Assembly: GCF_001641615.1 (NCBI RefSeq) | Contig: NZ_LRRU01000007.1 | Location: 1 to 64,000, forward strand | Direction of reading: 5' to 3' | DNA from: Pseudoalteromonas gelatinilytica | GTDB taxonomy: Bacteria > Pseudomonadota > Gammaproteobacteria > Enterobacterales > Alteromonadaceae | DNA: 64,000 nt | Shown here: piece by piece, positions 27,728 through 35,874 of the stretch | Layout of the letters: each line of letters starts with the position of its first letter | Position numbering within the stretch: position 1 is the stretch's first letter | Made by a program: the position numbers and the translations under genes | The notes under the pieces: generated by a model | Databases searched by the model: none | Seen by the model: the letters and a program-made list of their open reading frames with translations, nothing else | What the model was told of the DNA's origin: nothing

Positions 27728-28378
27728 ATGATGAGAATTAAATATCCTCGTACCCCACACCTTCCATGGTCATTGGGGGCTACGAATGACGACGTAAAGC
27801 AACGAGATTTAAGCCATTTTGTAGGCAAACAAGTTGTGGTCACGGAAAAAATGGATGGTGAAAATACCACCTTATACAATGACTACATTCATGCAAGATC
27901 GATTGATAGCCGCTTTCATCCATCGCGCGCTTGGGTAAAAGCACTGCAAGCGCAAGTAGGTTATAAAATACCAATCGGATGGCGTATTTGTGGTGAGAAC
28001 CTTTATGCAAGGCATTCAATCTCATACAACAATTTGCCAAGTTATTTTATGGCTTTTTCTGTGTGGAATGAGCTCAATCAGAGTTTAAGTTGGCAAGACA
28101 CTAAGCAGTTTCTTGCAAGCTTGGGGCTAACAACGCCAAAGGAGCTGTATGTTGGTCTTTGGTGTGAGCAAACAATTAAAGCTATTTCGATAGATACAGT
28201 GAACCAAGAAGGCTATGTGGTGCGACTTGCTGAAGGTTTTCATTACAAAGATTTTGCAAGTGCGGTAGCTAAGTGGGTTAGAAATAACCATGTAACCACC
28301 GAGCAGCATTGGATGTACGCAGACGTTATTGCAAATGGTTTACAAAAATCGGCAGGGGGCAAGCATGGAAAAAGTTGA
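27728..28378 (+). CDS. ATP-dependent RNA ligase (Rnl family)
   Basis: 216 residues. Nucleotidyltransferase motif I is EKMDGENTT, with the adenylated lysine Lys41. A motif III-like AFSVWNE, motif IV EGYVVRL and motif V-like KWVRNN follow. It seals 3'-OH/5'-phosphate RNA ends using ATP, the opposite chemistry to RtcB. The start is one of two consecutive ATGs after ATGGAGAAAT. It overlaps the HD-kinase gene by 14 bp, so the pair forms a classical heal-and-seal module: the kinase prepares ends and the ligase joins them. Confidence 0.88.
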   Translation: MMRIKYPRTPHLPWSLGATNDDVKQRDLSHFVGKQVVVTEKMDGENTTLYNDYIHARSIDSRFHPSRAWVKALQAQVGYKIPIGWRICGENLYARHSISYNNLPSYFMAFSVWNELNQSLSWQDTKQFLASLGLTTPKELYVGLWCEQTIKAISIDTVNQEGYVVRLAEGFHYKDFASAVAKWVRNNHVTTEQHWMYADVIANGLQKSAGGKHGKS

Positions 28379-29624
28379 AAACTGGTTAGCCAGCCTTGAG
28401 CTGCAAAGTACTCCTAGTTTTGCCGAATGTGTAATGAATCTAGGGCGCTTTTTTCCGTTATTAAATGAATTTGAACAAACAGAGCAGGATTCAATTTGGC
28501 ATGCAGAAGGTAATGTCGCAATACATACTGATTTAGTGCTTAAAGCACTTTATGAGTTGCTTGCTGCTGAGGCTTCTCATATCACAGGTAAAAAGCGACA
28601 AGCATTGATTTTATCTGCCTTACTGCATGATATAGCCAAGCCATTGACCACCCGAAAAAAGGAGATTCAAGGTCAGTTAAGGGTTGTAGCTCCGTTACAC
28701 GAAGAAATTGGTGCAAGTTATTTAGCAACTAAGTTGATAGAGCTTCCGCTTGAGCACAGTGTGATCATGGTAATTATGGGCTTGGTGGGTTTTCATCAAG
28801 TGCCAAAACGCCTTGTGATTAAAAATCAAGAGTTTAGTGATTATTTCAAGTTATCACTAAATGCAGATTTAGAACTTCTCTATTGGCTTGAATTAGCCGA
28901 TATGCGCGGTCGAGTTTGCAATGACTTGGCAGTACAGCTTGATTTGTTAGAGCAGTATCGCATGTTTGCACAAGATTATGAGTTATGGGGGGTAACTAAT
29001 CCCACAACTACATATTTAGCGCGGATACAGGTTAAGCCTACTAAGTCAGAGCAAACATTGTTGGATGGTTATGCCATAAAACAGTTAGCTGATGGCGACA
29101 TTAAGCTTGTCGAAGAAGCCATTGCGAAAAACTATACAACCTGTCAGCAGTACAGTCATTGCTACATTATGTGTGGTATCAGCGGCAGTGGAAAATCAAC
29201 TTGGATCGCAAATAACTTAGTCGATTTTGAAGTCATCTCACTTGATGACATTAGGGCTGAAATTAACGGTAAACGTAGCTGCCAAAAAAGTCGCGGGCAA
29301 GTTTTGCAACTTGCTAAGCAACGCTTTAAAAAGGCACTAGCTGAAAAAAGAAACCTAGTGTGGGATGCTACAAACACTCGTAAAGACTTTAGAGAACCAT
29401 TGATTGAGTTAGCTATTAATTACGGGGCATTAGTCACATTAGTGGTATTTCAATTAAGTGCTAAAAGCTTAAAACAATACAACCACAATAGAACGTTTAG
29501 CGTCAGTGATGACGTGCAGCAAAATCAGCTTAAAAAGTTTGAATGGCCTTGGCAAAGCCAAACACATAGACAATTAGTGATTGGCGAAGCAGGGCAGCTA
29601 CTTTATCAATTTGGTCGTTTTTAA
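28365..29624 (+). CDS. HD phosphohydrolase-polynucleotide kinase fusion
   Basis: 419 residues from the ATG at 28365, preceded by CAGGGGGCAAGC; the upstream start at 28329 lies within the ligase gene. N-terminal HD domain: His in VAIHTDLVLKAL and the HD pair in LSALLHDIAKPLTTR. C-terminal P-loop kinase of the Pnkp type: Walker A GISGSGKST (about 271-279), LDDIRAEINGKRS and WDATNTRKDFR. The HD part probably removes 2',3'-cyclic or 3' phosphates and the kinase adds a 5' phosphate, giving ends for the adjacent ligase. The assignment of each activity is inferred from domain type. Confidence 0.88.
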   Translation: MEKVENWLASLELQSTPSFAECVMNLGRFFPLLNEFEQTEQDSIWHAEGNVAIHTDLVLKALYELLAAEASHITGKKRQALILSALLHDIAKPLTTRKKEIQGQLRVVAPLHEEIGASYLATKLIELPLEHSVIMVIMGLVGFHQVPKRLVIKNQEFSDYFKLSLNADLELLYWLELADMRGRVCNDLAVQLDLLEQYRMFAQDYELWGVTNPTTTYLARIQVKPTKSEQTLLDGYAIKQLADGDIKLVEEAIAKNYTTCQQYSHCYIMCGISGSGKSTWIANNLVDFEVISLDDIRAEINGKRSCQKSRGQVLQLAKQRFKKALAEKRNLVWDATNTRKDFREPLIELAINYGALVTLVVFQLSAKSLKQYNHNRTFSVSDDVQQNQLKKFEWPWQSQTHRQLVIGEAGQLLYQFGRF

Positions 29625-29944: not shown

Positions 29945-30760
29945 CTATTCGCTCTCGTATCGCATAAGTGTCGTTTTAAACAACTGATTTAAAGCATCAA
30001 AATCGACGACTTTCTTCTTTACGTTAGCTGTGTAGTTTTCATGCCGTGTTAACTCTGCTTCAATAAACTCATTAATTACAGGCACAGCTGGCGCGTATTC
30101 TTTTTCTAAGCTTACCCGTTTTCGGGCGAGCAAATCTGAAATCGCAGCATCCAATGCAAGGTTCTCTTTGACAAGCTCCCTTAGTTTATCAAACTCAATC
30201 GGAGCAGGTTCATCGTATTTTTCGAGCCACATAATCGCCAGTAGTGGTCGTAATACGTAAAAGTATTTCTTCAGCGGCACACGCTCTTTTTTTAGATACT
30301 CTCTAAAGTTACCTTTTGCCATATGCAGGTAATGATAAATGCCTTTATGAGATGACACTATCTGTGGCATTAGCCGCTTTGCATGTGCAGCAAAAAAGCC
30401 ATCATCAACATACACTATGGGTGATTGTAACCACTCAATAAACGCGGGATTTGATTTGCTGAATAGTTTGAGTGCTTTACGAATATCCCAACCATTTATA
30501 TCGATTTCATCGACGATTGGGTATTCAATTACATCTCTTTGCTCTTCAACATCAATTGCTACATACCAATCTTTAGCATGCGCATAAATAAAGCGCACAT
30601 CATAATCACTGTTAGGACTTGCAAATCCCCATGCTCGGCTACCCGACTCAATAGCAAATAACACTTTAACGTTATGTTCTGATTCTGCCGCTTTTATGCG
30701 TCGCATTATTTCAGCTCTTACACTGTCATCGATTGCTGAGTGTGCTGTTGTGTTATTCAT
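29945..30760 (-). CDS. rlaP: RlaP-type nucleotidyltransferase
   Basis: 271 residues. A polymerase-beta-fold nucleotidyltransferase with ESGSRAWGFASPNSDYDVRF (GS motif and the metal-binding DYD pair) and a third carboxylate in DEIDINGWD. The following helices include KGIYHYLHMAKGNFREYL and KKYFYVLRPLLAIMWLE. It matches the RlaP family (YcgL), named for its association with RNA repair operons. It probably adds or restores nucleotides at damaged RNA ends. Its ATG overlaps the cca stop (ATGA), so it is co-translated with cca. Confidence 0.88.
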   Translation of the reverse strand: MNNTTAHSAIDDSVRAEIMRRIKAAESEHNVKVLFAIESGSRAWGFASPNSDYDVRFIYAHAKDWYVAIDVEEQRDVIEYPIVDEIDINGWDIRKALKLFSKSNPAFIEWLQSPIVYVDDGFFAAHAKRLMPQIVSSHKGIYHYLHMAKGNFREYLKKERVPLKKYFYVLRPLLAIMWLEKYDEPAPIEFDKLRELVKENLALDAAISDLLARKRVSLEKEYAPAVPVINEFIEAELTRHENYTANVKKKVVDFDALNQLFKTTLMRYESE

Positions 30761-32013
30761 TTTGTTTCCTTACTAATTTGCTCCGTGAAGTAATCACGTA
30801 GTTGCTTTATTTCTGCTTCGCGAACTGCTTTTCCGATGGCTATGCCGCTTTTACCTTGGTGTATTGCTTGTTGCACAAGTGCTTTTTTATCTAGCTTGTT
30901 TAGTTGTTTTACTAAATCCAGTGCAAGTGTTCGTTGCGCATAAGGGCGATGTATAAAACTTGGTCCCCGTCCTTGCGCATCACACTGACACGCATCCAAA
31001 AACTGCAAAAAGCGCGCAGGCTTATTTTGCGCATTTAGCTTGTCGACAAGTAATTTATGTAATTTTTTTGGTGTTAGCTGTGCGATTTTGTGACAACGCG
31101 TATGATTGTCACTGGTTAATGCTGCCAGCTCATAAAACCGTTTAGGCACTTTTAAACGCTGACAAAACGCCTTGATCACTGCTACGCCGCGTTGTTCATG
31201 GCCATGTAAATTGCCGTTTAGCTCAAAGCTCGTCGCCTTGCCAAAATCATGCGTTAATGCGGCAAAGCGAGTTTCTACATCAAAATTTAGCTGAGCCGCT
31301 CTTTGCAAAACTAACAGTGTATGGGTGTAAACATCGCCCTCAGGGTGGTGTTCTTTTGGTTGGGGAACACCACTCATTGCATCTATTTCTGGAAACACAC
31401 CTAGACCATACAACGTCTTGAAGTAAAGCTCAGGGTGAGGCTCAGCAAGTGCTTTTTCGGTTTCTTTCCAAACCCGTTCTGGCGTTAAATAAGCTAATTC
31501 ACCTTGTTGGTGTATTTGCATCATTAATGCCTTGGTTTCCGGATGTATACTAAAGCTTTCACCAAAACGAGCTAAAAATCGAGCCACTCTCAGTACACGT
31601 AATGGATCTTCAGCAAATGCGGCTGATGTATGTCTAAGTACTTTGTTATTTAAATCTTGTTGGCCGTTAAATGGGTCTATAAGCTCGCCATCGGCACTCA
31701 TCGCCATTGCATTGATAGTTAAGTCTCGTCGCGCAAGGTCGTCTTCTAAAGTTACGCTGGTACAGGCATTCACCGTGAACCCTTTGTAACCACGACCTTG
31801 CTTTCGTTCAGTGCGAGCTAAGGCATATTCTTGCTTGGTGGTTGGATGTAAAAATACAGGAAAATCACTACCAACAGTTTCAAAACCTAGGGCTAACATG
31901 GTTTCTGGTGTTTCACCCACAACAACAAAGTCTTGATCAGCTGCCGCTCTGTTTAGCAATTTGTCGCGAACTGCACCGCCGACTAAATAAACATGTTTTA
32001 ATGTGTTTTCCAT
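30757..32013 (-). CDS. cca: CCA tRNA nucleotidyltransferase with HD domain
   Basis: 418 residues. Class II CCA-adding enzyme of the multifunctional gammaproteobacterial type: VGGAVRDKLLNRAAADQDFVVVG (G-loop and DxD), RRDLTINAMA, EDPLRVLRVARFLARFG, and the HD domain (THDFGKATSF) with phosphohydrolase activity in relatives. It rebuilds the tRNA 3' CCA end. Placed 15 bp after rtcA and overlapping rlaP, it is part of the RNA repair operon rather than in its common housekeeping context. Whether the cell has another cca cannot be seen. Confidence 0.93.
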   Translation of the reverse strand: MENTLKHVYLVGGAVRDKLLNRAAADQDFVVVGETPETMLALGFETVGSDFPVFLHPTTKQEYALARTERKQGRGYKGFTVNACTSVTLEDDLARRDLTINAMAMSADGELIDPFNGQQDLNNKVLRHTSAAFAEDPLRVLRVARFLARFGESFSIHPETKALMMQIHQQGELAYLTPERVWKETEKALAEPHPELYFKTLYGLGVFPEIDAMSGVPQPKEHHPEGDVYTHTLLVLQRAAQLNFDVETRFAALTHDFGKATSFELNGNLHGHEQRGVAVIKAFCQRLKVPKRFYELAALTSDNHTRCHKIAQLTPKKLHKLLVDKLNAQNKPARFLQFLDACQCDAQGRGPSFIHRPYAQRTLALDLVKQLNKLDKKALVQQAIHQGKSGIAIGKAVREAEIKQLRDYFTEQISKETK

Positions 32014-32028
32014 TGCCGATCATCCTAA

Positions 32029-33063
32029 TTAGGTATCAGTTAATGATACCTGCCAAAGGTTATCATCAAGCTGAGTAAACGTTATCTCTACATGCAAAAG
32101 CGTTTTTATGACCTCTGCATTGGTTAAGCCGTGCAAGCTTGGTTCACTGGTTTTGAACTCGCCTTTACCGGCCAAAGCTAATGGCAAAAGCAGTTGATCT
32201 GCCAGATGTTCTTCTACTGCCGCTGCTGATTGGATAAATTGTGTAACCTGCTCTACTGCTTTGAGAGCCACTTTTTGTGCTGCAACGCCATGTTGACCAA
32301 TAACTTCAAAAATACTGTTATGAGTGTCTGATGTTATATGTAGCTGCAAGCTGTTTCCAGCTCCTATACTTTCTACACGAGTTATCGTGGTTTCAGCGCT
32401 TGTCCAATCAAGGCCTTGTTTTACAGTGCTAATTTCACGCTTCGCAACATGCCCCGGTAACTTGTTAACAAGTACTTTAATCGCCTTTTTGGCATCCTTA
32501 GTTGGCGGTGCAAAATGCGCAAAGGGCTTTAATGTTTCACACGGGTAAATGGTTAACTGCCATTTGCCACCACCGGCAGGGTAAAAGCCATACTTGGTAA
32601 CTGTAAGCTCGCAATGTACCCCCATTTTTGCTAAAGCTGGCAAATAACAGTGCTCAAAAAAGCACAGTGAAGGTGACATGCCATTATGTGTGCCACCCTC
32701 AAAGGTTATGGTAGAGGGCTGCTTTGCTGTCGCTAATGCCAGTAATACAGTTTGGCATACAAGCGTTGTACTGCCTGCTGTGCCAATCGCAAAGTGATAA
32801 TCCCCCGCTTTTATTTGTTTAGGCGCAAAGCGAATATGGTTTGAGCCCAGTTCAACTCCAGCTGTTTCGGCATCACAGATTTGTTGTGCTGCTAACACAC
32901 AGGTTAGGTGCTGGCGTAACAGGCCAGGCTTTTTTCGCTTGGCCCGAATATTAACAACTTCAATAGCTTGTTTGGTTAACATTGATAAGGTGAGGGCGGT
33001 GCGAAGTACTTGCCCTCCGCCTTCACCTTGTGCACCATCAATTATTAAATAGTTCATTATCAT
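32029..33063 (-). CDS. rtcA: RNA 3'-terminal phosphate cyclase
   Basis: 344 residues. Converts RNA 3'-phosphate to 2',3'-cyclic phosphate through a covalent AMP-enzyme. Family motifs include DGAQGEGGGQVLRTAL at the N-terminus, GTAGSTTLVCQT, GGTHNGMSPSLCFF and AGGGKW. His311 in SLHGLTNAEV lies where the adenylated histidine of the family is expected. ATG overlaps the rtcB stop (ATGA), so expression is coupled. In Salmonella, RtcA activity makes the cyclic-phosphate tRNA fragments that activate RtcR. Confidence 0.94.
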   Translation of the reverse strand: MIMNYLIIDGAQGEGGGQVLRTALTLSMLTKQAIEVVNIRAKRKKPGLLRQHLTCVLAAQQICDAETAGVELGSNHIRFAPKQIKAGDYHFAIGTAGSTTLVCQTVLLALATAKQPSTITFEGGTHNGMSPSLCFFEHCYLPALAKMGVHCELTVTKYGFYPAGGGKWQLTIYPCETLKPFAHFAPPTKDAKKAIKVLVNKLPGHVAKREISTVKQGLDWTSAETTITRVESIGAGNSLQLHITSDTHNSIFEVIGQHGVAAQKVALKAVEQVTQFIQSAAAVEEHLADQLLLPLALAGKGEFKTSEPSLHGLTNAEVIKTLLHVEITFTQLDDNLWQVSLTDT

Positions 33064-34286
33064 CCTTTTACGCAGACTATTTGCTTTAGCGTATGTACAA
33101 CCTCAACCAAGTCTTGCTGTGCAGCCATAACCTTTTCAATATCCTTGTACGCATGCGGAATTTCATCAATCACCGCGGCATCTTTGCGGCATTCTACCCC
33201 TTGGGTTGCCGCTATTTGATCTTGAATATTAAAGACCTTTTTAGCTTTTGTACGAGACATGACTCGGCCGGCTCCATGACTACAGCTATTAAAGCTATCT
33301 GGGTTTCCTAAGCCGCGAACAATAAAAGAGCGCGCTCCCATACTTCCGGGAATAATCCCCATTTCACCTTTTTGTGCACGTACAGCTCCTTTGCGTGTTA
33401 CAAAACAATCTTTGCCAAAGTGATGCTCACGCGAGATATAGTTATGATGACAGTTAACAGCAAGCTCCGCGGTTTCAAAAGCGATAGGTATTTGCTTTTT
33501 AAGCGCTTTGATTGCGTTAAACATCATGATCTCTCTGTTTTTAGCTGCAAAATCTTGCGCCCATTCTACAGCCTCAACATAGTCATCAAAGTATTCGCTT
33601 CCTTCTTTCAGATACGCAAGATCCATATCAGGTAAGTTGATTTGATGACGCTCCATCTCTTTTTTAGCCAACTCGATAAAGTAAGTGCCTATGCGGTTAC
33701 CAACTCCTCGGCTACCTGAGTGCAGCATGATCCAAACTGCATTGTTTTCATCTAGGCAGAGCTCTAAAAAATGATTGCCTGTGCCCATTGTACCTAGGTG
33801 ATTTACATGATTACTGTTTTTAATTGCAGGGTGCTTAGCGCAGATTTTTTCAAACCGCTTCTCAAGTTTTTGCCACTCACCTGCAACAACATCAGGAATA
33901 TTATGCCAAGCACCTCGGTCGCGAGCCCCTCTACCTCGGCCCGTGCGACCATGTGGTACCGCAGCTTCAAACGCATGACGAATTGCCGCCAGATTATCGG
34001 GCAGTTGCGAAGCCGTTAACGTTGTTTTCGTTGCAACCATACCGCAACCAATATCAACGCCTACCGCCGCAGGGATCACCGCATCTACAGAGGGAATGAC
34101 GCTACCTATTGTGGCGCCTTTGCCCATGTGAACATCTGGCATGACCGCGATATGAGAATGAACTAGCGACATTTGCGCAATATTATTTAATTGAGCAATA
34201 GCTGCATCTTCAAACGGTACGCCTTTTGTCCATGCCTTTATAGGTACCTGTCCTTGTTGTTCGATTGTGTTGTAGTTATTACACAT
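33060..34286 (-). CDS. rtcB: RNA-splicing ligase RtcB
   Basis: 408 residues, the same length as E. coli RtcB. Joins 3'-phosphate or 2',3'-cyclic phosphate ends to 5'-OH using GTP and Mn2+. His337 in CSHGAGRVMSR is the guanylation site and keeps the E. coli number. Metal motifs are GVDIGCGM (Cys), MGTGNHFLEL and HSGSRGVG, with HNYISRE near 280. Second gene of the slipin-rtcB-rtcA-cca-rlaP operon, 28 bp after slipin. The window also carries the paralogue rtcB2 at 25202. Confidence 0.96.
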   Translation of the reverse strand: MCNNYNTIEQQGQVPIKAWTKGVPFEDAAIAQLNNIAQMSLVHSHIAVMPDVHMGKGATIGSVIPSVDAVIPAAVGVDIGCGMVATKTTLTASQLPDNLAAIRHAFEAAVPHGRTGRGRGARDRGAWHNIPDVVAGEWQKLEKRFEKICAKHPAIKNSNHVNHLGTMGTGNHFLELCLDENNAVWIMLHSGSRGVGNRIGTYFIELAKKEMERHQINLPDMDLAYLKEGSEYFDDYVEAVEWAQDFAAKNREIMMFNAIKALKKQIPIAFETAELAVNCHHNYISREHHFGKDCFVTRKGAVRAQKGEMGIIPGSMGARSFIVRGLGNPDSFNSCSHGAGRVMSRTKAKKVFNIQDQIAATQGVECRKDAAVIDEIPHAYKDIEKVMAAQQDLVEVVHTLKQIVCVKG

Positions 34287-34314: not shown

Positions 34315-35469
34315 TTAGGCTATTTTTACGACCCCGTTCATTAGCCCTTCAAGGCCGCCATAAACGGTTAAGTTATTTATTTTTTCTGCGACTTTCTCTA
34401 ATGCCTCTAACTCTTTAAGGCGCATTAGCGTCGGGTTGTTCTCAATTACTTTCGCGGTGTTGTGTAAGCTGCGTGTTGCTGATGTTTCTTCACGTCGCTT
34501 TATTACATTTGCCTCAGCTGCTTTTTGCGCTTCGACTACTTGATTTAAAATGGCTTTCATCTCGCCCGGTAAAATAATGTCTTTCACACCAACGCCAGAT
34601 AGAGCAATACCAATCTCCTTGAGTTGTTCAATCACCAGCTCTTTCACTGTTTCATTGATATACAACTTATCTAATAAGATATCATCGAGCGTTTTTGTAC
34701 CAACCGCTTCTCTGAGTGCTAGCTGTAGAGTTTTGTAGATGAATTCATCCAATTTATCTACGCTCTTTGCTGCAAGCTCAGCATCTATCAGCTTGATATT
34801 GGCAGTTAAATTAATGCGCAGGCTAACTCGGTCTTTGCTGAGAATTTCTTGCCCAGATACTTCTACGCTTTGTGTTCTACAGTCATAACATTTCACTTCA
34901 ATATCATGATTAAATTGCCAATAGGCATGAATGCCAGGCTGCAACTTCCCAATAAAATGGCCGTTAATGTAAAGTAAGCCTACATGCTCTTTCGCGACTT
35001 TAAACTCGGCGATCGGTTTGATTGCGACTGTTTTTTCGCTTCTAATTAAGCGAGTTGCGCTATTTGCACCAGCTCGATTAACTAAATTTAATAATTGCTC
35101 AGGCAGCGCTTGAGTGCTGTTGAGAGTAATTCTTTCAAGTTTTATAGCCCCTGCATCTTGCCAAATATATAAGTGCTCACCAGGAGCGACGATCCCTTGT
35201 AGTAAATCATCAACGTACAACATACCTAGCTCGTTGTTCTCAAGTTTCCAATGACTTATATGCTGTTGCAAGATTGGGTTATTGCGGTACAAACGTTCAG
35301 TATTTCGCTCTGAGAAATACAGCGAGTTAATATCAAAGGTGACAAACTCAAGCTGATTCTGAAAATCCCAATAACGGTGCTTTCCTGGCATTAACACGTC
35401 TGTTAGTTGCTGGTCTTTAAAAACGAGCACTCTTTGGTTCTCTGCTACTAATTGTGTTTTTCTTAACAT
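34315..35469 (-). CDS. slipin / SPFH-domain protein of the RNA repair operon
   Basis: 384 residues with an SPFH/stomatin core (about 165-330: VSGQEILSKDRVSLRINLTANIKLID, TLQLALREAVGTKTLDDILLDK, IGIALSGVGVKDIILPGEMK) and a C-terminal coiled coil (VVEAQKAAEANVIKRREETSATRSL). The N-terminal ~160 residues look like repeated beta strands (LVFKDQQLTDVLMPGKHRYW and similar stretches). No hydrophobic hairpin is seen, unlike membrane slipins. Slipins recur in RtcB operons; a scaffold for repair is assumed but unproven. First protein gene of the operon, about 380 nt after the predicted start of transcription. Confidence 0.86.
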   Translation of the reverse strand: MLRKTQLVAENQRVLVFKDQQLTDVLMPGKHRYWDFQNQLEFVTFDINSLYFSERNTERLYRNNPILQQHISHWKLENNELGMLYVDDLLQGIVAPGEHLYIWQDAGAIKLERITLNSTQALPEQLLNLVNRAGANSATRLIRSEKTVAIKPIAEFKVAKEHVGLLYINGHFIGKLQPGIHAYWQFNHDIEVKCYDCRTQSVEVSGQEILSKDRVSLRINLTANIKLIDAELAAKSVDKLDEFIYKTLQLALREAVGTKTLDDILLDKLYINETVKELVIEQLKEIGIALSGVGVKDIILPGEMKAILNQVVEAQKAAEANVIKRREETSATRSLHNTAKVIENNPTLMRLKELEALEKVAEKINNLTVYGGLEGLMNGVVKIA

Positions 35470-35632
35470 GTTTTATTTCCTTATTGATAGTTAGCAAGTG
35501 TGTATTTGTTAACTGAAAAAGGCTTTGGGTGTCGCAATAACAGGGAGCATCCGGCTTGCTGTTATCGTTCATGCTTAAGCGTTTATCAGTCAGCGCAAAC
35601 AACGACTTACTAACATTTAAAGTTACGATTTT

Positions 35633-35703
35633 GACTAAGGCGGGATTTGAACCCGCAACATCCAAATTGGTTTTGGTGCTCTACCTGTTTGAGCTACTTA
35701 TAG
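35633..35703 (-). ncRNA. tRNA-like module B in the RNA repair operon leader
   Basis: 71 nt with every tRNA segment in order: acceptor 5' CTATAAG, TA, D arm GCTC-9-GAGC with GG in the loop, one base, anticodon stem CCAAA/TTTGG, 5-nt variable loop, T arm GCGGG-TTCAAAT-CCCGC, acceptor 3' CTTAGTC. The anticodon loop has only five bases (ACCAA) instead of seven. The acceptor pairs at its four inner positions only, and no CCA follows. It cannot be a normal decoding tRNA. It abuts module A with no gap and lies in the slipin-rtcB leader. Closest in feel to tRNA-Trp, but degenerate. Confidence 0.85.
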
Positions 35704-35772
35704 TATTAAGATGGGAATCGAACCCATGACCGACGAAATCATTTCGCTGCTCTACCTCTGAGCTACATTAAT
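35704..35772 (-). ncRNA. tRNA-like module A in the RNA repair operon leader
   Basis: 69 nt. TAGCTC-AGAGGTA-GAGC forms a canonical D arm, GCGAA-ATGAT-TTCGT an anticodon arm with a 5-nt loop, CGGTC a 5-nt variable loop, and ATGGG-TTCGATT-CCCAT a perfect T arm. The acceptor strands ATTAATG and CTTAATA pair with one bulged base (six pairs). There is no encoded CCA; module B begins at the next base. It shares the shortened 5-nt anticodon loop with module B, which argues that the loop length is a design feature and not random decay. Confidence 0.85.
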
Positions 35773-35777
35773 AGTTT

Positions 35778-35849
35778 TGTGATTAGGCATACGTGTTCAC
35801 AGTGTGTAACGCACCAGGGTGATATTTGAATCACTCCTAATTAATCACA
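35778..35849 (-). ncRNA. 72-nt foldback at the 5' end of the operon leader
   Basis: TGTGATTA and TAATCACA, at the two ends of a 72-nt segment, form an 8-bp perfect stem. Inside are GTGAT-TCAAAT-ATCAC (5 bp) and a weaker CAC-ACT-GTG hairpin. Its first base coincides with the start site predicted from the sigma-54 promoter, so it would be the capped 5' domain of the transcript just before tRNA-like module A. It does not fit a tRNA. Folding was judged by eye. Confidence 0.6.
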
Positions 35850-35858
35850 CTTCTCTAT

Positions 35859-35874
35859 TCCAAGAGCTGTGCCA
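35859..35874 (-). promoter_or_regulatory. sigma-54 promoter of the slipin-rtcB-rtcA-cca-rlaP operon
   Basis: On the minus strand TGGCAC-N5-TTGGA fits the RpoN consensus with one mismatch at -12. The start should fall at about 35848-35849. RtcR, encoded divergently, is the sigma-54 activator known to control rtcBA operons. Confidence 0.82.

What the first reader, a model, noticed from the sequence alone, without database searches (positions are those of the whole stretch)
35633..35772. Two abutting tRNA-like modules with 5-nt anticodon loops in the leader of an RNA repair operon
On the minus strand two consecutive segments (35704-35772 and 35633-35703) each carry a full set of tRNA arms with consensus D and T arms, yet both have a 5-nt anticodon loop, incomplete acceptor stems and no CCA. 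They touch with no spacer and lie between a sigma-54 promoter and slipin-rtcB-rtcA-cca-rlaP. Established: RtcR's CARF domain is activated by 5' tRNA fragments with 2',3'-cyclic phosphate, and RtcB/RtcA/Cca/RlaP act on RNA ends. Inference: the modules are built-in tRNA mimics. They could be cut by the same ribotoxins, act as ligand source or decoy for RtcR, or form processing sites for RNase P/Z that release the mRNA. I know of no description of this.
Basis: partly seen in the sequence, partly recalled or inferred. Interest (0 to 1): 0.95.

Follow-up and report, generated by a model that had tools for sequence, protein, structure and literature searches.

The report
tRNA-mimic RNA paired with vault-like protein
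Just in front of its slipin (SPFH-protein) gene, this bacterium's RNA-repair operon carries two tRNA look-alikes that are part of a larger, predicted folded RNA found beside the same gene in many other bacteria, and this RNA likely works as that protein's partner in mending broken tRNAs.

Summary
Two abutting tRNA-like modules (35704-35772 and 35636-35700, minus strand) score 44.5 and 41.2 bits against Rfam tRNA, with 5-nt anticodon loops and no CCA. They are not ordinary or decayed tRNA genes: of 93 leader modules found in 80 slipin loci plus the window, 1 has all four canonical marks (7-nt loop, U33, 7-bp acceptor, CCA), against 36 of 57 other tRNA matches in the same loci, and acceptor and anticodon stems covary. 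The modules are the core of a predicted ~360-nt RNA with a covarying 5' three-way junction not in Rfam and a covarying 3' domain. Strong matches of a 5'-domain model, run on whole genomes without the protein, lie beside the same SPFH gene except two at contig ends. In 24 of 80 loci the RNA lies between rtcB/A and slipin, away from the RtcR promoter. The slipin lacks a membrane helix and has two extra SPFH1-like domains, a vault-like layout. Most likely the RNA is slipin's partner, working like Y RNA; this is inferred. I recall that Burroughs and Aravind 2016 noted a tRNA-like RNA with Band-7 repair modules, so the kind is not wholly new.

The parts
35861..35874 (-). sigma-54-type promoter TGGCACAGCTCTTG (predicted)
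   Evidence: same motif starting 21-50 nt before the 5' domain in 22 of 28 RNA-first loci with that domain; in 1 of 24 loci where the RNA is internal; chance 0.019 per 102 nt
35778..35853 (-). 5' domain of the predicted leader RNA: three-way junction (outer stem, hairpin A with UUC.. loop, hairpin B GGYGCR...YGYRUAYC)
   Evidence: R2 model match 35772-35853, 67.2 bits (the window is one of the rows that built R2); RNAalifold 20 pairs, 16 with compensatory changes; 89.8% cells paired vs 61.0% shuffled
35704..35772 (-). tRNA-like module 1, 5-nt anticodon loop, no CCA
   Evidence: RF00005 44.5 bits; ARAGORN tRNA-Ser(tga)
35633..35703 (-). tRNA-like module 2, 5-nt anticodon loop, 4-bp acceptor, no CCA
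   Evidence: RF00005 41.2 bits at 35636-35700; R1 69.1 bits (the module is one of the rows that built R1)
35490..35614 (-). 3' domain: long-range stem GTTAGTAAG/CTTGCTAAC enclosing a hairpin with GCAAGCCGGATGCTCCC (35543-35559); ends about 15 nt before the slipin ribosome-binding site
   Evidence: RNAalifold on 10 loci: 43 pairs, 29 with compensatory changes; z -3.0 for the whole leader
34315..35469 (-). slipin (SPFH/Band_7), 384 aa, no membrane helix by hydropathy, two extra SPFH1-like N-terminal domains in the model; partner gene of the RNA
   Evidence: Pfam Band_7 108.8 bits; model pLDDT 82.4; hydropathy; fold matches
33060..34286 (-). rtcB RNA ligase
   Evidence: PF01139 424 bits
32029..33063 (-). 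rtcA RNA 3'-phosphate cyclase
   Evidence: PF01137 259 bits
30757..32013 (-). cca-like nucleotidyltransferase; another homologue exists in this genome
   Evidence: PF01743, PF12627, HD; homologue at G000:C10:173795
29945..30760 (-). rlaP nucleotidyltransferase
   Evidence: PF10127 295.4 bits
36024..37616 (+). rtcR sigma-54 activator, divergent
   Evidence: PF06956 263 bits, PF00158 160.7 bits

Best explanation
The two modules are tRNA mimics inside a predicted ~360-nt three-domain RNA that sits directly upstream of a slipin (SPFH) gene whose product is predicted to be soluble, and this RNA likely serves as that protein's RNA partner in tRNA repair, working like a Y RNA. Shown by sequence: conserved tRNA folds that lack the canonical marks, a covarying 5' junction and 3' domain, near-exclusive linkage to one SPFH subfamily, and a sigma-54-type site at the 5' end. 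Inferred: RtcR switches the operon on when cut tRNAs accumulate; the transcript's tRNA-like modules are handled by tRNA-maturation enzymes, which would free the RNA from the slipin mRNA; the RNA binds the slipin multimer through the 5' and/or 3' domain; and the tRNA-like elbows dock tRNA-handling enzymes (RtcB, RtcA, Cca, RlaP) or broken tRNAs, while the altered anticodon loops make the modules poor translation partners and possibly poor nuclease substrates.
For: Covariation of module acceptor (7 of 7 pairs) and anticodon stems (5 of 5) in 42 modules. 1 of 93 leader modules has all four canonical tRNA marks vs 36 of 57 other tRNA matches in the same loci. 5' domain in 74 of 80 slipin loci plus the window, 70 of these 75 with E under 1e-4 and 5 weak (E 0.02-0.5) at the expected place; 36 of the 75 rows built the model. 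Genome scans with that model alone: 9 of 60 relatives have matches over 40 bits, exactly the 9 that carry this slipin; of 11 matches over 31 bits among 274 class genomes, 10 lie beside slipin and 1 at a contig end beside rtcB; of 13 matches of 28 bits or more among 398 phylum genomes, 12 lie beside slipin and 1 at a contig end. Conversely 15 of 274 class genomes carry the slipin: 10 have the 5' domain by the default scan, 3 more with filters off, 1 the tRNA-like module only, 1 a T-arm piece only. The RNA stays with slipin where it lies behind rtcB/A (24 of 80 loci). Precedent: YrlA of the Salmonella rsr-yrlBA-rtcBA operon has a tRNA-like domain, and Y RNA tethers Rsr to PNPase (passages of PMC7790460, PMC8394870).
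Against: No transcript, processing or binding data. The RNA was not found at a distance from slipin, so a cis-acting leader is not excluded. The minimum-energy fold of the window's own leader does not show the consensus 5' junction or the acceptor and D arm of module 1 (it does show both T arms, both anticodon stems, the D arm of module 2 and the 3' domain). The number and completeness of modules vary: one degraded module in L036, no module match in L102, only 17.6 bits in L050, T-arm pieces only in L157 and L158. The 3' domain was tested for covariation in 10 related loci only; in distant loci it was read by eye. No TROVE match in the own genome, so there is no Ro60/Y-RNA system beside it to compare. 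Deleting the P. aeruginosa rtc-locus SPFH gene (paFlo8) gave no phenotype in the passages of PMC13086221 that I read; I saw no tRNA-damage assay there and did not check that paFlo8 has this RNA.
Confidence: 0.5

Rival explanations
1. The RNA is a cis-acting leader that controls slipin expression: a tRNA-handling protein of the operon, or slipin itself, binds the tRNA mimic and represses translation until broken tRNAs titrate it away.
For: It is directly 5' of slipin in every strong genome-scan match that could be checked; the two others end at contig edges. The 3' domain ends about 15 nt before the ribosome-binding site. tRNA-like leader elements such as the thrS operator are known (PMC8394870 passage).
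Against: The 3' stem does not cover the ribosome-binding site in the window fold. Three structured domains of about 360 nt are large for such a switch (inference). In loci where gene order differs the RNA is with slipin, not with rtcB, though that fits a leader of slipin too.
Confidence: 0.27
2. The modules are decoys or ligand sources: they compete with tRNAs for anticodon nucleases, or when cut feed 2',3'-cyclic-phosphate fragments to RtcR.
For: RtcR CARF binds 5' tRNA fragments with cyclic phosphate; YrlA fragments were not detected and its tRNA-like domain was proposed as a competitive inhibitor of the nuclease (PMC7790460 abstract and passages).
Against: Anticodon loops run from 4 to 9 nt and U33 is kept in 33 of 56 seven-nt loops, which does not look like a conserved nuclease site (inference). 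In 24 of 80 loci the RNA is not at the RtcR promoter. The ligand-source idea needs basal transcription of a sigma-54 operon (inference). In E. coli tRNA fragments bound CARF but did not activate RtcR in vitro (PMC9650030 passage).
Confidence: 0.15
3. The modules are decayed tRNA genes left in the operon, possibly from backup tRNA arrays such as those seen beside slipin in some loci.
For: tRNA arrays lie beside slipin in several loci (L051, L055, L056, L074), so an origin from tRNA genes is plausible.
Against: Decay does not give compensatory changes in acceptor and anticodon stems or retention of a module in 78 of 81 sources.
Confidence: 0.03

Closest known systems
tRNA-like RNA cognate to SPFH/Band-7 RNA-repair modules (Burroughs and Aravind 2016, NAR, doi 10.1093/nar/gkw722; abstract recalled, paper not held)
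   Same: tRNA-like RNA beside a Band-7 gene in RNA-repair operons; probably the same kind
YrlA / bacterial Y RNA (Rfam RF02553) in rsr-yrlBA-rtcBA
   Same: RtcR-controlled rtc operon; tRNA mimicry; placed beside the gene of a ring-forming protein
   Different: In the Rfam YrlA model the T arm comes before the D arm; here each module has D-anticodon-T order. Match only 36.7 bits against a cut-off of 69. SPFH protein instead of Rsr
Eukaryotic vault (major vault protein, vault RNA; TEP1 with TROVE domain, recalled)
   Same: SPFH core preceded by stacked beta domains, no membrane helix; an RNA in the complex
   Different: Three beta domains here (MVP has more, recalled); similarity by fold only; I know of no tRNA-shaped vault RNA
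Backup tRNA (trn) operon of Anabaena repressed by TrcR (PMC10272220)
   Same: tRNA genes and rtcB are repressed by one regulator, and a slipin gene rises in its mutant (passages)
   Different: tRNA operon on a megaplasmid with the other genes elsewhere; no mimic RNA described in the passages read

Membership tests
canonical tRNA gene | consensus D and T arms, tRNA fold | tested here: met
   RF00005 44.5 and 41.2 bits
canonical tRNA gene | 7-nt anticodon loop with U33, 7-bp acceptor, CCA | tested here: not met
   5-nt loops, incomplete acceptors, no CCA in the window; 1 of 93 leader modules has all four marks
YrlA / Y RNA RF02553 | match above Rfam gathering score | tested here: not met
   36.7 bits against 69
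YrlA / Y RNA RF02553 | permuted order, T arm then D arm joined by an acceptor-like stem | tested here: inconclusive
   mean pairs of 7 over 13 tandem pairs: module 1 acceptor 5.5, module 2 acceptor 4.9, permuted junction 3.6; but in L031, the near-identical copy of the window, the junction has 4, against 3 and 4
YrlA / Y RNA RF02553 | Rsr/TROVE protein partner | tested here: not met
   no PF05731 match in the own genome; 3 of 274 class genomes match
Band-7-associated tRNA-like RNA (2016) | tRNA-like RNA next to Band-7 and RtcB genes | tested here: met
   the definition is recalled
Band-7-associated tRNA-like RNA (2016) | identity with the published sequences | not testable with these tools
   paper not held
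RtcR/sigma-54 RNA-repair operon | divergent RtcR, sigma-54 promoter motif, RtcB and RtcA | tested here: met
major vault protein | stacked N-terminal beta domains plus SPFH shoulder, no membrane segment | tested here: inconclusive
major vault protein | closed cage with bound RNA | not testable with these tools
   needs purification and cryo-EM

The most novel reading that the evidence does not exclude
This is a bacterial vault-like ribonucleoprotein: a soluble SPFH protein with extra SPFH1-like domains builds a cage around, or scaffolded by, a dedicated tRNA-mimic RNA, and concentrates RtcB, RtcA, Cca and RlaP with broken tRNAs inside it. It would give the eukaryotic vault a prokaryotic functional parallel with a testable job, tRNA repair.
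Probability: 0.2. Interest if true: 0.93.

Novelty: new variant of a known kind. Interest (0 to 1): 0.76.

Why it matters
It identifies a large predicted structured RNA, with 5' and 3' domains that match no Rfam 15 family in this window, that marks one SPFH subfamily across several classes of its phylum and ties it to tRNA repair. It gives a concrete partner and function to test for SPFH proteins that have no membrane anchor, offers a possible second solution (SPFH + tRNA mimic) beside Ro60 + Y RNA in the same kind of operon, and makes the role of tRNA mimicry in RNA repair directly testable.

Tried and rejected
Decayed tRNA genes: rejected on covariation and retention.

YrlA membership: rejected on score and partner. 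The YrlA match spans the T arm of module 1 and the D arm of module 2, so I tested a permuted fold across the junction: over 13 tandem pairs it pairs worse than the normal fold, but in the window's near-identical copy L031 it is a tie (the window's own row there is off by one base). So the permuted fold is not excluded for the window.

Universal 5-nt loop: rejected; it is common in the window's clade only.

Viral carriage: 80 stretches matched the patterns in viral contigs, none encodes the slipin by tblastn.

Mutual exclusion of the slipin RNA and TROVE: not testable, since TROVE matches only 3 of 274 genomes, one of which (G299) also carries slipin and the RNA. The RF02553 genome scan did not complete.

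Own-genome tRNA most similar to the modules: the comparison gave no rows (only module 1 vs 2: 49 of 68 identical). Not pursued.

MVP homology: suggested by the whole model, not confirmed by the N-terminal model alone.

3' domain: a first alignment of 17 loci was misaligned for seven (L038, L043, L044, L045, L046, L048, L049), which have other inserts; I dropped these and folded the other 10.

Weak matches of the 5' model (under 26 bits) in the genome scans have no slipin or rtc gene in the loci checked (L120-L125, L136-L141, L204-L210) and are treated as chance; three matches of 22.7-23.5 bits beside slipin, found with filters off, are treated as real. Six weak phylum-scan places were not fetched.

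R1 lists no overlapping matches, so window module 1 and some other first modules drop out and of the counts; window module 1 is.

Literature: 10 searches listed no paper that I could see describes the three-domain RNA; only the open-licence library was searched. I read abstracts and passages, no paper whole.

Full report
WHAT IS THERE. On the minus strand of the window two tRNA-like modules abut: Rfam tRNA matches at 35704-35772 (44.5 bits) and 35636-35700 (41.2 bits; gathering score 29). ARAGORN calls only the first, as tRNA-Ser(tga). Both have consensus D and T arms, a 15-nt anticodon arm (5 bp + 5 nt), imperfect acceptors and no CCA. In the own genome they are the 89th and 90th of 94 tRNA matches. 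Upstream are a sigma-54-type site and divergent rtcR; downstream slipin, rtcB, rtcA, cca, rlaP.

THE MODULES ARE CONSERVED MIMICS. 79 of 80 have at least one loose T-arm motif within 760 nt before slipin; the exception, L107, has only 272 nt held. With a strict 5-bp T arm, 72 of 74 loci with the 5' domain have at least one and 43 of 74 at least two, a density of 3.41 per kb against 0.072 per kb elsewhere in the same loci. From 84 regex-selected modules in the loci I aligned 40, plus both of the window (42 rows). Because D and T motifs were the selection, only acceptor and anticodon stems are an independent test: 7 of 7 and 5 of 5 pairs show changes on both sides, with 77.9% and 92.9% of cells paired; over the whole structure 90.8% against 69.4% when shuffled. 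The outer acceptor pair forms in only 16 of 42 rows, so incomplete acceptors are common.

NOT TRNA GENES. A model of the module (R1) was run over the 80 loci plus the window (151 matches, 150 aligned). I counted 93 leader matches (78 of 81 sources): those between the 5' domain and slipin or, in five loci without a 5'-domain match, within 800 nt before slipin. Of these, 56 have a 7-nt anticodon loop, 17 have 5 nt and the rest 4, 6, 8 or 9 (one unparsed); 33 of the 56 keep U33; 20 of 92 are followed by CCA; 1 of 93 has all four canonical marks. Of 57 other tRNA matches in the same loci 36 have all four, although 5 of the 57 could not be scored for CCA. The 5-nt loop is a feature of the window's clade (9 of 26 modules) more than of distant loci (8 of 67). 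R1 reports no overlapping matches, so window module 1 and some other first modules are missing from these counts.

A LARGER RNA. The modules sit in the middle of a longer predicted RNA. The 5' domain is a three-way junction with an outer stem, a hairpin with a UUC-type loop, and a hairpin GGYGCR...YGYRUAYC. From 54 regex-located copies I aligned 35 plus the window: RNAalifold gives 20 pairs, 16 with compensatory changes. The model R2 finds it in 75 of 81 sources (74 of 80 loci plus the window), 70 of them with E under 1e-4 and five weakly (E 0.02-0.5) at the expected place; 36 of the 75 rows built the model. No match: L075, L089, L099, L107, L108, L110. On the 75 rows 89.8% of cells pair against 61.0% shuffled; since that alignment was fitted to the structure it leans towards it. 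The 3' domain is a long-range stem ending about 15 nt before the slipin ribosome-binding site: 43 pairs, 29 with compensatory changes in 10 related loci, after seven misaligned loci were dropped; in distant loci an equivalent stem was seen only by eye. The 393-nt leader folds 3.0 sd below shuffles, 0 of 100 as low; its minimum-energy fold shows the T arms, both anticodon stems, module 2's D arm and the 3' domain, but not the consensus 5' junction or module 1's acceptor and D arm. In an Rfam search of this stretch up to E 1 no family covers the 5' or 3' domain; a sub-threshold YrlA match spans the tRNA modules.

IT BELONGS TO SLIPIN. R2 was run on whole genomes with no reference to the protein. 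Of 60 relatives 15 match, and the 9 with more than 40 bits are exactly the 9 carrying this slipin; the other 6 reach at most 23.6 bits. Of 274 class genomes 17 match; the 11 over 31 bits lie beside slipin (10) or at a contig end beside rtcB (1), and the 6 under 24 bits have neither. Of 398 phylum genomes 25 match; 12 of the 13 with 28 bits or more lie beside slipin and one ends at a contig edge, and five of the 13 are labelled same phylum only, that is, other classes. The samples overlap in part. Conversely, 15 of 274 class genomes carry the slipin: 10 have R2 by default filters, 3 more with filters off (22.7-23.5 bits), one has the tRNA-like module only and one only a T-arm piece. Of the 14 of these loci scanned with R1, 12 have a complete tRNA-like match and two (L157, L158) only a T-arm piece. 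Gene order differs: in 30 of 80 loci the RNA follows the divergent rtcR directly, in 24 it lies between rtcB/A and slipin, in 1 rtcB is downstream without rtcR, in 25 no rtcB was found in the flank held. A sigma-54 motif precedes the RNA in 22 of 28 RNA-first loci with the 5' domain but in 1 of 24 internal ones. The RNA thus travels with slipin, not with the RtcR promoter.

HOW IT LIKELY WORKS. The nearest working model is bacterial Y RNA: a tRNA-like domain, with Rsr tethered to PNPase (PMC8394870 passages); the Salmonella rsr-yrlBA-rtcBA operon is induced when tRNA fragments accumulate (PMC7790460, abstract and passages). I propose that this RNA does for slipin what Y RNA does for Rsr: it binds the multimer and offers tRNA-like elbows to repair enzymes. 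Processing, binding and cage formation are inference. A cis-acting leader remains the main rival.

WHAT IS KNOWN. From memory, the abstract of Burroughs and Aravind 2016 names SPFH/Band-7 modules with a cognate novel tRNA-like molecule; the paper is not held, so I could not check which parts of the RNA it covers. Ten literature searches listed nothing that I could see on the three-domain RNA in the open library. P. aeruginosa PaFlo8 lies in the rtc locus and its deletion had no effect in the passages on growth, pyocyanin, swimming, biofilm and oxidative stress (PMC13086221); I did not check whether PaFlo8 belongs to this subfamily. I therefore file the finding as a new variant of a known kind.

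Noticed in passing
L051 6588-10399, L055 6971-10682, L056 3061-3790, L074 2817-3657, L159 472-943 and 2766-3365: Arrays of tRNA genes (up to 17 ARAGORN calls besides the leader module in L055; R1 matches in L159) lie beside slipin/rtc loci of Kangiellaceae and others, as if a backup tRNA supply were coupled to tRNA repair.
   Followed up: partly
window 30757-32013 (-): The operon's cca is not the only one: another homologue (60% identical over 190 residues, open frame 381 aa) lies elsewhere in the genome.
   Followed up: partly
window 28329-29624 (+): ORF with HD and AAA_33 (polynucleotide-kinase-like) domains lies convergent to the end of the rtc operon; possibly a further RNA-end enzyme.
   Followed up: no
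L004-L007, L043-L047, L049: P. luteoviolacea-type slipins are longer (540-555 aa open frames in L004-L007), apparently with a further N-terminal repeat.
   Followed up: no
L120-L124: Five genomes of the window's genus without the slipin have similar 61-nt weak matches (22.7-23.6 bits) to the 5' domain model; no slipin or rtc gene beside them.
   Followed up: no
window 35543-35559 (-): The hairpin GCAAGCNGGATGCTCCC is strongly conserved in the 3' domain of related loci; a possible protein-binding site.
   Followed up: partly
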